This document shows, piece by piece, positions 15,692-63,912 of a DNA stretch of 64,000 nucleotides (position 1 is its first letter; each line of letters starts with the position of its first letter). Below the pieces are notes generated by a model. That model did not search any database and was not told the DNA's origin. It saw only the letters and a list, made by a program, of their open reading frames with translations. Source of the DNA: Polytrichum commune (lineage: Eukaryota > Streptophyta > Polytrichopsida > Polytrichales > Polytrichaceae); the NCBI GenBank assembly GCA_950295325.1, contig OX485804.1, forward strand, positions 1,426,001 to 1,490,000, written 5' to 3'. The translations under genes and the position numbers were made by a program.

Positions 15692-16196
15692 GTTTTCACC
15701 AGCTACTTGTCATTGGCAATTTTAGGAAAATTTGTGGAGAACAAATTCACAAGTTATCACTTGTGGAGTTTAGTTTCAGTCATCTTGTCACCAGTTTGGG
15801 TGGAACTGAAAATCTGGGTTTCATTTGGTGTGTGCACTTAAAGGCAATAGCACATGGCAGACATAAGCATTTTGTCACTTATCTTTTTGATGTTTTCATC
15901 AGGTACTTGTTGCAAATTTGAAGGAAAACTTGTGGACAACACATTCATGACATTTCGCAGCATTTAGTTTCATATCTAATTCATATTAGATATGCTGCTT
16001 ATCATATCTATAAATTTCATATTTTCATCAGCTACTTGTCATTGCAAGCATTAGAAAACTTGTGGACAACACATTCACAATATTTCGTGGAGTTTAGTTT
16101 CAGTAATCTTGTCAATTAAATATCTGGTTTCACCTCGTGTGCATTTCAGGGCAATGGCACTTGGGGATATAAGCATTCCGTCACTTTTCACAGACG
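15692..16196 (+). repeat. Three diverged tandem units across leader intron, acceptor and start codon
   Basis: Unit 1 (15692-15886), unit 2 (15892-about 15976, cut short) and unit 3 (16022-16196) share TTTTCAYCAG, TACTTGT, AACTTGTGGACAACACATTC and GGAGTTTAGTTTCAG. Unit 3 contains the real acceptor and the start codon. Unit 1 extends over the same region but has lost both: the acceptor CAG is changed and GCAATGGCAC has become GCAATAGCAC, followed by a decayed copy of the first codons (ACATAAGCATTTTGTCACTT against ATATAAGCATTCCGTCACTT). Confidence 0.85.
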
Positions 16197-19100
16197 AAGT
16201 GTTACAAGAGTCTAACAATGGGAACAGCAGTGACAAGGATAGTGCAAAGGAAATTGAAGCTGAAGCTGAAGAATCAGTGCTAATACCTGGCCTGCCGAAT
16301 GACTTGGCTCTCCAGTGCCTCGCCCGAGTGCCACGGAGGCATCACTTGAACTTACGGTGTGTGTGTAAAAAATGGCGTGACATGGTGGCAAGTGAGTTTT
16401 ACTATTCGTTGCGAAAGGGGTTGGGGCTGAGTGAGGGGTGGATTTACGCATTTAGCCGCGACTACTCAGAATGCTTACATTGGCATGTGTTGGATCCGGT
16501 CACTCGAAGGTGGAAGGAGCTTCCTGGCATGCCAGGTGACTGCCTACGCAGGTACTCATTTTAAGATTCTCCATTGTTTTGGGTCAGCATATAGATGCCA
16601 CCTTGGAGTACAAAATTCTGTTAAGATGAGATGTGATGCATGTTTTTCTTGAACGTGTTCCTTCACTTGTAAGCATGTTTTGCCTTTTGACATCCTCAAG
16701 GCTCATATATTCAAGTCCAATTGTACTGGTTATAACCAGTGTTGGTCTGGTATAGTCGTTTTTTGATACCATTCGGGTATCTATAATGAGGGTTTGACAT
16801 TTTTTGATGCCAGTAGGGTATGAGTATTTAATGGTATTTTTGTTTTCGATACCATTTGGGTCTATATACTATGTAAGGACCCTCATACCTAGGCAAAATC
16901 ACCCTAGTATCAATATGGTTCATAATGTTGTTGACCCAAATGATAACTTGGGTATACAAAGATTCTCTCACCTTGACATACTCACCAAATATCAATATCT
17001 GACTGGTATTACTATTTTGATACCCATGGGTAGGTTCTTTGATACCATGATTGAAGTTGATTATTGATACCATGCATTCCACCTATATACCGGACCAACA
17101 CTGGTCATAACCTGTTTGAAGGCTGGTTGTGGAAATTGCTGGGAGTACATGGACAAAATTTGGAGAAGCCAAAACATTATTTAGCTGTGTGTCTGTCTTT
17201 CTGGTGTGTTTCCCAGTAAGCTTTCTCAAATATTTTGGGCCAGCAAATAATTGCCACCCTGGAGTGATATTTTGTTAAGAGTTGTGATTCTTGTTTGTTC
17301 TTGAATGTGTTCCTTACTTGTGAGCATGTGCTGCCTTTTGATATTCTGAAGGCTCATGTATTCAAGTCCAAATCCCACAGTGATAACCTGGTTATTAAAG
17401 GTTAGTTGTGGAATTTGCTGGGAATTTAGGGAGGAAATTTGGACGAGCTACAAACAATATTTAGCTGTGTTTCTCTCTTTCTGGTGTGGCGGTGGAGGTG
17501 TATACATTTGCAATGATAGCTTAAAAGGTGAAAGGCGTCAATGCAAGGAAGATCCCCATATCAATGTCAGCATGTCATTTAGGGAATGAGACTTCTGAAG
17601 CTAAGAGTGTTCCTGAGGCGTAACATTTCTGGAATTTATGACCATAGAGGTAGTGGCCAGTGGTTTTCAAATCATTTTTCCCTTACCCCAAATTTGGATT
17701 GCAAAGAGTTATCCTTGAATTCAATGGGATTTTTGGTCATGAGTTTGTCCCCTATGATCTCCCATTGGTTGTTTTGAATACAAAATCAAGAATTTTCTTT
17801 CAACGCTTGGTGCATGCTTGTAGGCAGTGTTTGAATTTGATGAAGAGCAACCTATCTCAGTTCATTGAGGGCTAAACTCATTTTAGCACTCCTTGGCATG
17901 CCACACAAATTGAGTTCAACCTTTAAAGAATCAATATAGAATGTTCTTTGTTCAAACCTCCACACTACCTTCCTCTAAGCATGCACTGACAGCTTGTCAA
18001 ACATGGAAGGTGTTGTATGCAAAACAACAAACTCCCGACCAAGAAATTTGTCAAATCAAAAGAAAAGTCTAATATCATAGTATGTGGATCGCATTTTAAT
18101 TTGGAAACTTGTGTTATCTAAGTAAACACGTTTGTATTAAAAATTTGCAGGCTCTCTGACATAGGTGAAAATTTTAGCAGGTATGGTGTAGCATGCTCGG
18201 TGGTGGAGCGAGAGCTTTACGTAATGGGAGGTGGGGGAAGATACCATGTTCCGACTTCGGAGGTATACAAATTTGACCCCGTGAAGAACGAGTGGACCGA
18301 AGGTGCAGCGATGGAAATGGCACGGTGCTATTTTGTAAGTGGTGCACTCAATGGTCGCTTGTACGCTGTGGGAGGCATGGGGATCACATCTGCGGCGCTA
18401 ACGTCGTGGGAAGTTTTCAACCCTGAGACTAACCAATGGTTTTCACGGGAGGACCCAAATGTGGTGCCCGACCTTGGCGAGTCCCTCGTCATGGACGGGA
18501 AAATTTACGTTCGGCATGTGAGCACTTCGTGTCCCGGATACATGGGTTCATACGCAGCAGTTTTCGACCCGGTCGAAAGTGCATGGGCGTCGGTTGATAA
18601 CGAGATGATGAAGAAATGGTGTGGGCCAACTGCCATCACTGAAACGGATGTGTATATGTTGGACCAGACTTTTGGGATTAAGTTGATGGTGTTGGATAAA
18701 GAGACAGGTGAATGGAACCGTGTTGGCCGGTTTTCGCCGCACTCGATCCGCTTGCCTTGCAGGTAAGAATGATTTGGCATGTCCAGGTGGTGCTGAGCTG
18801 GTGTCTGAAATCATTTCACTTTGTTTTTAATTGTCCTTGCTAGGTACAAGTTGTTTTATGAATCAATAGAGTTATCTGCAAACTCAACATGAGTTGTGGT
18901 TGGGAGTTCGTTGTTTTGCATACATCAACACCTTCCGTGTTCGGTAAGTTTTCGATGCATGCTTGGAGGTAGGTAGTAGTGTGGAGGTTTGAACGAAGAA
19001 CATTCTATATTGGTTCATTGGTGGTCAAACTCATTCCATCTGGCATGTAACCAAGAGGTGCTCAAAATAAGTTTGGCACTATCTCCGAGCATGCACCATG

Positions 19101-62513: not shown

Positions 62514-62947
62514 TAGTGCCCGCAAGCTAATTGGCAACTTACTTTCACTTTTTCGAACTGCAAACCGGGTCCACCAGTCACTTCCCTCCCAATTTCCAGG
62601 ACAGATAGCAGCCCTCCGATCCTTAGTATAGCGGAGCAGATTATGCCACGTAATCAAAGCCGTTTGCCGTGCTTCCCAAGTGGCCCTGCCAATGTACGTC
62701 GTCAGATCTTGATCGGACAATGGGGTTTGGCAGATTAGGGTTTGAAGATGTGTGCATGCGGAAGGGTTCTTTTCTTTGCGTGAGTCTGCACATGAGGGTT
62801 TGGTTCTGTCGATACTTACTTTTGTGTTTCTCATTTTGCATCGTTTGTTCTTCGTCGGGTAAGGTGTCCGAAGGTATCTTAGCTTCCCAGGCTGCAGTCG
62901 AGCATTAGGCCGTTGTGTTTTCTCTTCCATAACGCTCGATCGTCAAC
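62514..62947 (+). promoter_or_regulatory. UAP56 promoter and leader region
   Basis: TTAGGGTTT, the inverse telo-box core, lies at 62735-62743 about 200 bp before the start, and another TGAGGGTTTGG patch lies near 62792. The sequence directly before the ATG (CGATCGTCAACATGG) gives A at -3 and G at +4. The open frame crossing this stretch on the minus strand is an overlap artefact with no domain. Confidence 0.5.
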
Positions 62948-63912
62948 ATGGGTGAGCCCTATACCGAAACCGAGGAGTTGCTCGATTACGAAGAGGAGGA
63001 AGAGGCCGCGCCCGATGCCGTTGCCGCAAAAGCCAACGGCGAGACTGTCAAGAAGTAAGTGACATCTTTGAGTCCTTTCCTTTCAAGAATATGGATGGTA
63101 ACCAGTCTATGTGTTGGACTGAGTGTCCATACCTTCCAATTCTTTTCCTTAAAATATTTCTATCATTAAGCATGCCTAATGGGAGTCCTTTTTGTGCATA
63201 CACGAGGCCTTTACAATCTAATCGGATTTTATTTCTCATAATTATTCATAATATTCCAAGCTCTAATTTAGAGAGAACTGGGCACAGAGTTATCCATGTG
63301 ATGAGGATGCCCTTGTCTTGAAATTGATCGGTGGAGATATTGTGCTTTTATTGAGAATGTGGAGGAGATGGTGGATGGTAAACCAGTATCTGTGTTGAAC
63401 TGAATGACCATGGCTTCTCATTCTTTTTCTGCAAATATTTGTCTCATTAAGCATGCCTTATGAGAATCATTTTATGAAGGCATTAGGTCTTTGCAGTCTA
63501 ATGGAATTTTTAGTTCTTATATGTATATCCGATATTCCAATGTCTAACTGAAAGAAAAGTGGGCGAAGAGTTATCCATATGAACGGGATGCCCTTGTCTT
63601 GAATTCGATCAGTTGAGATTTTGCGTTTTTATTGAGTCTGCGGAGTAGGTCACCAAGTGCCTCTCTTTTTAACTGCTTGGTTTGATCTATTTCGTGGGGT
63701 TGTTTGCGTGTTGACAACTAGACCATGTGTAGATTGATTAGGTGTTTTACACAATTTCACATCTTTGTGGTTGCTGTGAGTAATATTAAATTGGTTCTTT
63801 TGTGGTTGCAGGGGCTATGTTGGAATACACAGTTCCGGCTTCAGAGACTTCCTTTTGAAACCTGAGCTTCTCCGGGCAATTGTTGATTGCGGTTTTGAAC
63901 ATCCATCTGAAG
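62948..63912 (+). CDS. UAP56: DEAD-box RNA helicase UAP56/SUB2, 5' end only
   Basis: ATP-dependent RNA helicase of the TREX complex, acting in spliceosome assembly and nuclear mRNA export. Coding exons 62948-63054 and 63812-63912 are in the window; the gene runs on past 64000. The protein opens [20 protein letters not shown], the acidic N-terminus of the family, and a split Lys codon joins to [20 protein letters not shown] and then [13 protein letters not shown]. That last segment is the start of the Q motif, with the invariant Gln expected in the next exon. The helicase motifs (DECD etc.) lie outside. A donor (G|GTTAGG) closes exon 2. The start has strong context. Confidence 0.95.
63092..63645 (+). 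repeat. ~279-bp tandem duplication in UAP56 intron 1
   Basis: Units at 63092-63370 and 63371-63645 share TGGATGGTAAMCCAGT-like sequence, CATTAAGCATGCCTWATG, CTTTRCARTCTAATSGGA, AGAGTTATCCATRTGA and GATGCCCTTGTCTTGAA. They fill most of the 757-bp intron. No splice site is copied as far as I can see. Confidence 0.9.

What the first reader, a model, noticed from the sequence alone, without database searches (positions are those of the whole stretch)
15692..63645. Tandem duplications concentrated in leaders and first introns across the window
Seen: diverged tandem units lie in the leader intron and intron 1 of the F-box gene, intron 1 and upstream region of the glycosyltransferase, intron 1 and start region of the hydrolase, intron 1 of the coiled-coil gene and intron 1 of UAP56. 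Periods range from about 180 to 490 bp. Intergenic DNA instead holds MITEs and few such arrays. Several units cover a splice site or the ATG. Inference: a local process linked to gene 5' ends (for example replication slippage or repair of breaks tied to transcription or R-loops) has been lengthening first introns. I know of no named system that does this at five neighbouring, unrelated genes.
Basis: partly seen in the sequence, partly recalled or inferred. Interest (0 to 1): 0.72.

Follow-up and report, generated by a model that had tools for sequence, protein, structure and literature searches.

The report
Old tandem duplications at gene starts
In this plant genome, many of the genes sampled carry an old tandem duplication of about 130-450 bp near the start codon or in the first intron but none in later introns, which suggests that DNA breaks near gene starts once lengthened these regions.

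Summary
The duplications are real. The pattern is not confined to five neighbours, though. I tested 25 gene models: 6 in the window, 5 in the +-100 kb flanks and 14 elsewhere (13 of these DEAD-box genes taken from Pfam hits, not by repeats). Tandem copies were found in 12 of 20 first introns and 9 of 25 1-kb upstream regions, but in 0 of 36 later introns and 1 of 25 1-kb downstream regions (intron contrast p = 2e-7). They peak between 0 and +1.5 kb from the ATG. Later introns hold about as much dispersed-repeat DNA as first introns (12.8% v 13.6%), so intolerance of extra length does not easily explain their lack of duplications. Two UAP56 paralogues each have their own intron-1 duplication, apparently formed after they separated. 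Copy divergence clusters near K = 0.2 with none below 0.12, which suggests a past episode. The best mechanism is break or paired-nick repair near transcription starts: the location is shown, the chemistry inferred, R-loops untested. The sample is small and must be repeated genome-wide.

The parts
15690..16189 (+). Leader duplication of the F-box/kelch gene; the last copy carries the start codon at 16154, the corresponding codon of the first copy reads ATA; a third partial copy lies between
16154..20122 (+). F-box/kelch gene, predicted CDS exons 16154-16551, 18151-18762, 19951-20122
   Evidence: gene finder; Pfam F-box and Kelch
16567..17488 (+). Intron-1 tandem duplication of the F-box gene, unit about 270 bp; copy 1 is 16567-16720 plus 17104-17208, copy 2 is 17223-17371 plus 17380-17488
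   Evidence: the reading as one split unit is inference
16735..17105 (.). High-copy dispersed repeat of about 370 bp inside copy 1, inferred to be a later insertion
   Evidence: 2916 first-look candidates, 40 scored
31708..32366 (-). Duplications at the exon-1 end and in intron 1 of the DUF604/Fringe-like glycosyltransferase; the splice donor context is copied
29101..33191 (-). DUF604/Fringe-like glycosyltransferase, CDS exons 33191-32333, 30950-30860, 29715-29101 (exon-1 end set by hand)
45609..46804 (-). Intron-1 duplications of the alpha/beta hydrolase gene (periods 180 and 443), nearly filling intron 1 and reaching the modelled start of exon 2
   Evidence: only itself and one weak local match in the genome search
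47829..48190 (-). ATG/leader duplication of the hydrolase (period 186); the upstream copy keeps an in-frame ATG followed by a 10-codon ORF
44154..47839 (-). Alpha/beta hydrolase gene, exon 1 47839-46842
52167..52715 (-). Abutting two-copy duplication (period 282) that fills 549 of 653 bp of intron 1 of the coiled-coil gene
50255..52941 (-).
62948..63055 (+). UAP56 exon 1 (exon 2 at about 63802-63915)
   Evidence: DEAD domain in following exons
63092..63648 (+). Two-copy duplication (period 280) in UAP56 intron 1 (553 of 746 bp covered); one match, itself, in the genome search

Best explanation
The arrays are the decayed products of ordinary small tandem duplications (usually one unit and one extra head-to-tail copy, roughly 130-450 bp) that arose again and again within about -0.5 to +2 kb of the start codon in genes across the genome. 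They survived where they did not disrupt coding sequence, that is in leaders and first introns, and cover 38% of the first-intron DNA sampled. The likely origin is end-joining repair of breaks with long complementary overhangs, from paired nicks on opposite strands in promoter-proximal, open, transcribed DNA: overhang fill-in followed by joining gives a two-copy tandem duplication. The clustering of copy divergence near K = 0.2 suggests that most date from one period and that the process is rare now. Shown: reality, tandem geometry, 5' confinement in this sample, occurrence on several contigs, no detectable block constraint. Probable: recurrence in the UAP56 paralogues. Inferred: breaks, nicks, open chromatin or R-loops, and the episode.
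For: First introns 12/20, 1 kb upstream 9/25, later introns 0/36 (of 44; 8 under 150 bp not tested), 1 kb downstream 1/25, shuffles 0/106. Fisher p = 2e-7; 1e-5 for introns of 350 bp or more; outside the window 7/14 v 0/24, p = 3e-4, or 5/14, p = 0.004, without two repeat-rich introns; v later introns starting within 2 kb of the ATG 0/17, p = 7e-5. Dropping three later introns that probably hold unannotated exons leaves 12/20 v 0/33, p = 5e-7. Coverage 6304 of 16474 bp in intron 1 v 0 of 18627 in later introns, while dispersed repeats cover 2247 and 2388 bp of them, so later introns tolerate inserted DNA about equally. Profile by distance from ATG: 16% (-500 to 0), 31%, 37%, 30% (0 to 1500), 11% (1500-2000), 4%, then 0% beyond 2500. 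Ten of 25 catalogued pairs abut within 25 bp. UAP56 paralogues: 4-fold K 0.81 (85 sites), intron 1 unalignable, each with its own duplication at K 0.25-0.27. ts/tv about 1.0 and no significant mismatch clustering, p = 0.09. Precedent: small tandem duplications form at breaks with complementary 3' overhangs by CST/Pol alpha-primase fill-in plus end joining, and the introduction relates paired-nick models to plant insertions (PMC8355091, passages).
Against: No junction microhomology, empty alleles or young examples were seen, so the break model is not tested directly. GC skew, an R-loop correlate, is only slightly higher in the duplicated regions (+0.14) than in first introns (+0.11) and later introns (+0.08). 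Similar duplications lie away from the gene models tested: about -84.5k (period 138, about four copies), -64k and -22k, K 0.12-0.22. Seven loci have none in leader or intron 1 (RPS20, DUF1517, DUF247, eIF1A-like, L027, L031, and L028 with unresolved 5' end). L024 and L025 introns are repeat-rich, and L032/L033 are recent paralogues with unrelated upstream DNA, so these four are weak. In the L034/L035 pair the tree of copies is not clean, and within-locus homogenisation could mimic independent events in UAP56. Gene models are my own, without RNA data, and TSSs are unknown.
Confidence: 0.5

Rival explanations
1. Selection keeps them: duplications arise anywhere at low rate, but those in leaders and first introns are retained because they duplicate regulatory or intron-mediated-enhancement elements, whose effect falls with distance from the 5' end.
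For: Position matches where intron-mediated enhancement works in plants (review PMC2682935, passages). Duplications sit nearer the donor end than the acceptor end of intron 1 (median 38 v 153 bp, 11 introns, Wilcoxon p = 0.04). Of seven motifs counted, GATC is denser in intron 1 (3.7 v 2.0 per kb).
Against: Mismatches are not significantly clustered (p = 0.09), and divergence of about 20% in substitutions plus indels looks neutral. The Arabidopsis enhancing motif (recalled) is not clearly enriched (3 v 2 sites). Later introns, where duplications should be near neutral, hold none.
Confidence: 0.25
2. First introns are simply longer and more tolerant of extra DNA, so they accumulate old duplications that any intron would get.
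For: First introns average 824 bp and later ones 423 bp in this sample. Six of 20 first introns but 8 of 44 later introns hold at least 50 bp of dispersed repeat, a mild difference.
Against: The 15 later introns of 350 bp or more have none (p = 1e-5). Dispersed repeats cover similar shares, 12.8% of later and 13.6% of first introns. Total base pairs sampled are about equal. My first tally, 23% v 14%, had counted the UAP56 paralogue match as a repeat; with that mended I raise this rival from 0.10 to 0.12.
Confidence: 0.12
3. The units are transposable elements or gene-capture debris that prefer 5' gene ends.
For: A high-copy repeat sits inside the F-box array. Parts of the coiled-coil exon 1/intron 1 recur at five other places. 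L024 and L025 introns are repeat-rich.
Against: The UAP56, hydrolase and glycosyltransferase units have no high-copy relatives in whole-genome searches. Window units have essentially no dispersed match in 264 kb. Only five gene regions were searched genome-wide.
Confidence: 0.07
4. A chance cluster plus reader selection: five genes looked alike by luck.
Against: Genes taken elsewhere without looking at repeats repeat it.
Confidence: 0.03

Closest known systems
Small tandem duplications from repair of adjacent nicks or breaks (rice insertions, Vaughn and Bennetzen 2014, seen only as a reference entry; mouse and human cell work PMC8355091, passages read)
   Same: Head-to-tail copies, tens to hundreds of bp (size range for rice recalled), unique sequence, end-joining logic
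   Different: Here concentrated in leaders and first introns and old; no break or junction evidence
Internal direct repeats of newly gained introns in Daphnia (PMC4202315, abstract and passages read)
   Same: Repeats inside introns ascribed to staggered breaks that passively lengthen introns
   Different: There new introns (repeats shared with the exon were 4-12 bp); here established introns, at a position shared between UAP56 paralogues, with units of about 90-350 bp aligned, and first introns only
Plant first-intron effects and intron-mediated enhancement (PMC2682935, passages read)
   Same: Same location, stronger towards the 5' end
   Different: A property of expression, not of duplication; not tested here
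Minisatellites
   Same: Tandem units
   Different: Here usually two copies, units mostly above 130 bp, low identity; short-unit arrays lie elsewhere in the flanks

Membership tests
Break-repair small tandem duplication | Head-to-tail two-copy unit of tens to hundreds of bp | tested here: met
   10 of 25 catalogued pairs abut within 25 bp; median period 276; the rest are separated by partly unalignable DNA
Break-repair small tandem duplication | Unit is local unique DNA, not a mobile family | tested here: met
   Five gene regions searched genome-wide: UAP56, hydrolase and glycosyltransferase without high-copy relatives; the F-box array contains a high-copy insert and the coiled-coil unit has partial copies at five places
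Break-repair small tandem duplication | Junction microhomology or overhang signature | not testable with these tools
   copies too diverged, no related genome held
Break-repair small tandem duplication | Unduplicated allele in relatives | not testable with these tools
   this genome has no relatives in the collection
Daphnia-type neointron | Intron newly gained | tested here: not met
   UAP56 intron 1 is at the same exon position in a paralogue with 4-fold K 0.81; tested for this gene only
Minisatellite array | Many copies of a short unit at high identity | tested here: not met
Intron-mediated enhancement element | Raises expression in a position-dependent way | not testable with these tools
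   no expression data; motif counts inconclusive
RIP-like or methylation decay of duplicates | Strong excess of transitions between copies | tested here: not met
   411 transitions, 404 transversions over the 28 pairs catalogued, 3 of them outside gene starts

The most novel reading that the evidence does not exclude
In this plant lineage a transcription-start-linked break-repair process went through an active episode in which a large share of all genes gained a 130-450 bp tandem duplication in the leader or first intron, making it a main cause of long first introns; the process has since slowed, leaving a dated, genome-wide scar of where breaks form in germline chromatin.
Probability: 0.3. 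Interest if true: 0.8.

Novelty: new variant of a known kind. Interest (0 to 1): 0.6.

Why it matters
First introns are long in many eukaryotes and the reason is debated (recalled). If a mutational process tied to gene starts lengthens them by tandem duplication, that gives a concrete, countable cause. It would also give a fossil record of break-prone sites near transcription starts, and, because some copies carry the start codon or splice donor, a source of uORFs and alternative donors.

Tried and rejected
Local-cluster idea: rejected, because genes taken elsewhere show the same. RIP-like decay to explain the lack of young copies: rejected, ts/tv 1.0. Block conservation as a cause of a divergence plateau: not supported (p = 0.09). 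Transposon origin: checked genome-wide for five gene regions, with a high-copy insert in one and partial copies of another. Shared ancestral duplication in the UAP56 paralogues: not supported, since between-paralogue alignments of the intron-1 copies are near the level of one shuffled pair. The first gene-finder settings merged everything and were discarded. Literature on intron-1 or leader concentration of tandem duplications: nothing on it among the listed papers (titles and abstract starts seen; those lists are capped). A moss search for species identity was uninformative; that this may be a moss is a guess from memory and is not claimed. A first tally of dispersed repeats in later introns was wrong and is mended.
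Full report
What was given. The window is G000:C2:1426001-1490000 of a 407.8 Mb genome in 64 contigs. Seven large contigs, C1-C7, have lengths given that add to about 406 Mb. The gene content is that of a plant: DUF604, CAND6/7-type GOST, a receiver plus Myb-like response regulator, the plant family DUF247. The species is not identified. The names UAP56, RPS20, eIF1A-like and LOS4-like are recalled from sequence; Pfam supports only the DEAD domain for the helicases.

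Is it there? Yes. I fetched 100 kb on each side and wrote a simple gene finder trained on local ORFs. It recovered the F-box/kelch, DUF604 glycosyltransferase, alpha/beta hydrolase and coiled-coil genes and UAP56 exon 1, plus RPS20, a DUF1517 protein, a type-B-like response regulator, a DUF247 gene and a CAND7 pair; some exon ends were set by hand. The coiled-coil duplication fills 549 of 653 bp of intron 1, the UAP56 one covers 553 of 746 bp, and the hydrolase ones cover 1135 of 1172 bp. The F-box unit of about 270 bp appears split by a high-copy repeat of about 370 bp.

Is it local? No. I took 14 DEAD-box gene regions from a Pfam search of the genome, picked by hit position and intron structure and, for L022, as the UAP56 paralogue; repeats were not looked at beforehand. 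At E up to 1e-5, 10 of the 14 show a local duplication in upstream DNA, leader or intron 1: L022, L023, L026, L029, L030, L034 and L035 clearly; L025 in a repeat-rich intron; L032 and L033 upstream, where these recent paralogues (few or no differences at 59 four-fold sites) have unrelated DNA. Clear cases lie on C1, C2, C4 and C5. One region (L028) had no clear 5' end and was left out of the gene table, though it shows no duplication. Other predicted flank genes (a NIF phosphatase, methylase-like genes, repeat-rich predictions) were also left out. The table has 25 gene models: 6 in the window, 5 in the flanks, 14 elsewhere (13 DEAD-box genes and an eIF1A-like gene sharing L024).

Counts. With one rule (self-BLAST at least 40 bits, offset at least 60 bp) the result was: first introns 12 of 20, 1 kb upstream of the ATG 9 of 25, later introns 0 of 36 (44 in all, 8 under 150 bp not tested), 1 kb downstream 1 of 25, shuffled copies 0 of 106. 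L023, whose duplication spans the exon-1 end, is not among the 12. Of the 12, L024 (40 bits) and L025 are rich in dispersed repeats; without them the count is 10 of 18. Of the 9 upstream hits, the CAND7 pair is one recent duplication, L032/L033 are weak for the reason above, and the glycosyltransferase hit is weak (49 bits). Fisher tests: p = 2e-7 overall, 1e-5 for introns of 350 bp or more, 3e-4 outside the window (0.004 strict), 7e-5 against later introns starting within 2 kb of the ATG. Three later introns (UAP56 and its paralogue, L026) probably hold unannotated exons; without them 0 of 33, p = 5e-7. By base pairs, with a stricter rule that removes dispersed repeats, coverage is 6304 of 16474 in intron 1, 2213 of 24593 upstream, 0 of 18627 in later introns, 48 of 21758 downstream, 871 of 28155 in coding exons, and 7671 of 209613 in the rest of the 264 kb, of which 3295 bp is a leucine-rich-repeat array and much of the remainder short-unit arrays. 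Dispersed repeats cover 2388 bp (12.8%) of later introns and 2247 bp (13.6%) of first introns, so later introns accept inserted DNA about equally. An earlier tally overstated the later-intron figure by counting the UAP56 paralogue match.

Shape. Coverage of noncoding DNA by distance from the ATG is 0% (-1500 to -1000), 5% (-1000 to -500) and 16% (-500 to 0), then 31%, 37% and 30% over 0 to 1500, then 11%, 4% and 0%; bins further upstream show 6%, 0% and 2% (the first CAND7 leader array was added by hand and its twin left out). Later introns lying at +500 to +2000 (5.8 kb) have none, so both distance and intron rank may matter, though the sample cannot separate them well. Within intron 1 the arrays lie nearer the donor than the acceptor (medians 38 and 153 bp, 11 introns, p = 0.04; distances entered by hand and the gene models). 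Three arrays cross the exon-1 end: the glycosyltransferase and L023 ones keep the donor sequence in both copies, and L030 overlaps the exon end. Two carry the start codon region clearly (hydrolase, F-box) and L029 at its edge. The hydrolase upstream copy still has an in-frame ATG with a 10-codon ORF, while the F-box one has lost it.

History. Among 24 pairs (25 at gene starts catalogued, the second CAND7 copy dropped) K2P is 0.129-0.315, mean 0.205, while a constant birth rate would predict many below 0.12 (KS p = 0.0004-0.002). The pairs are not all independent and the upper end is cut by detection. The UAP56 paralogues have 4-fold K 0.81, no alignable intron-1 sequence, and each its own intron-1 duplication with K 0.25-0.27: independent events, or homogenisation within each locus, which I cannot exclude. 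The LOS4-like pair (L034/L035; 4-fold K 0.43 over 45 sites) shows copies C-D 0.129, A-C 0.189, A-B 0.258: at least one further event after the split, but not a clean tree. The CAND7 pair shares one older duplication (a1-b1 0.014).

Mechanism. Mostly two copies, units of 130-450 bp, largely unique DNA, neutral-looking decay (ts/tv 1.0; no significant clustering, p = 0.09) and 5' confinement fit tandem duplication by end joining at breaks with long overhangs. PMC8355091 (passages) shows this chemistry in mouse and human cells and relates earlier paired-nick models to plant insertions. Why gene starts? Open, transcribed, R-loop-prone DNA is the simplest guess, but GC skew is only mildly higher (+0.14 v +0.08). 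Retention by selection for expression is the main rival. The Daphnia work (PMC4202315, passages) is the nearest precedent for intron lengthening by staggered breaks.

Limits. Gene models lack RNA support and TSSs are unknown. DEAD-box genes dominate the outside sample. Intergenic comparison is weak because transposon turnover may erase old duplications there. No other plant genome could be compared.

Noticed in passing
L002:1-3295 and L002:5123-6442 (window -99999 to -96705 and -94877 to -93558): Two long arrays of a 72-bp unit (45.8 and 18.2 copies) that read as leucine-rich repeats of the type LKEIPEALGNLTSL.
   Followed up: no
Left flank, window coordinates about -76810, -10122, -4990 and -38639: Separate short arrays built of palindromic cores such as GTTTGGGTCGANCGACCCAAAC, and a similar one of another sequence at -38639.
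   Followed up: no
L003, L005 and L010 (window about -88786 to -82874, -63502 to -60259, -13052 to -10715): Three multi-exon predicted genes that look related by eye; a fragment of the first matches the N6_N4_Mtase DNA methylase family (E 1.4e-7). Origin (host gene or element) not resolved.
   Followed up: partly
L017:3551-4870 and L018:3687-5006: Two CAND7-type GOST genes 10 kb apart with no difference at 199 four-fold sites: a very recent duplication that includes the leader array.
   Followed up: partly
window 52135-52814; C1:73756938, C3:13490133, C4:51133810, C5:27749626, C6:24599486: Pieces of exon-1 end and intron 1 of the coiled-coil gene recur at five other places, mostly 87-95% identical, as if captured fragments.
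   Followed up: partly
window 48025: Possible uORF of the hydrolase gene created by the leader duplication: in-frame ATG 186 nt upstream, stop after 10 codons.
   Followed up: partly
L012:1529-2522 and L022:6950-7944: About 1 kb in the middle of the two UAP56 genes aligns at 82% although only a short exon is expected there and intron 1 does not align at all: a possibly conserved later intron.
   Followed up: no
L026:8205-9518: An array of a 166-bp unit, about 8 copies at 88% identity, about 2.7 kb upstream of a DEAD-box gene.
   Followed up: no
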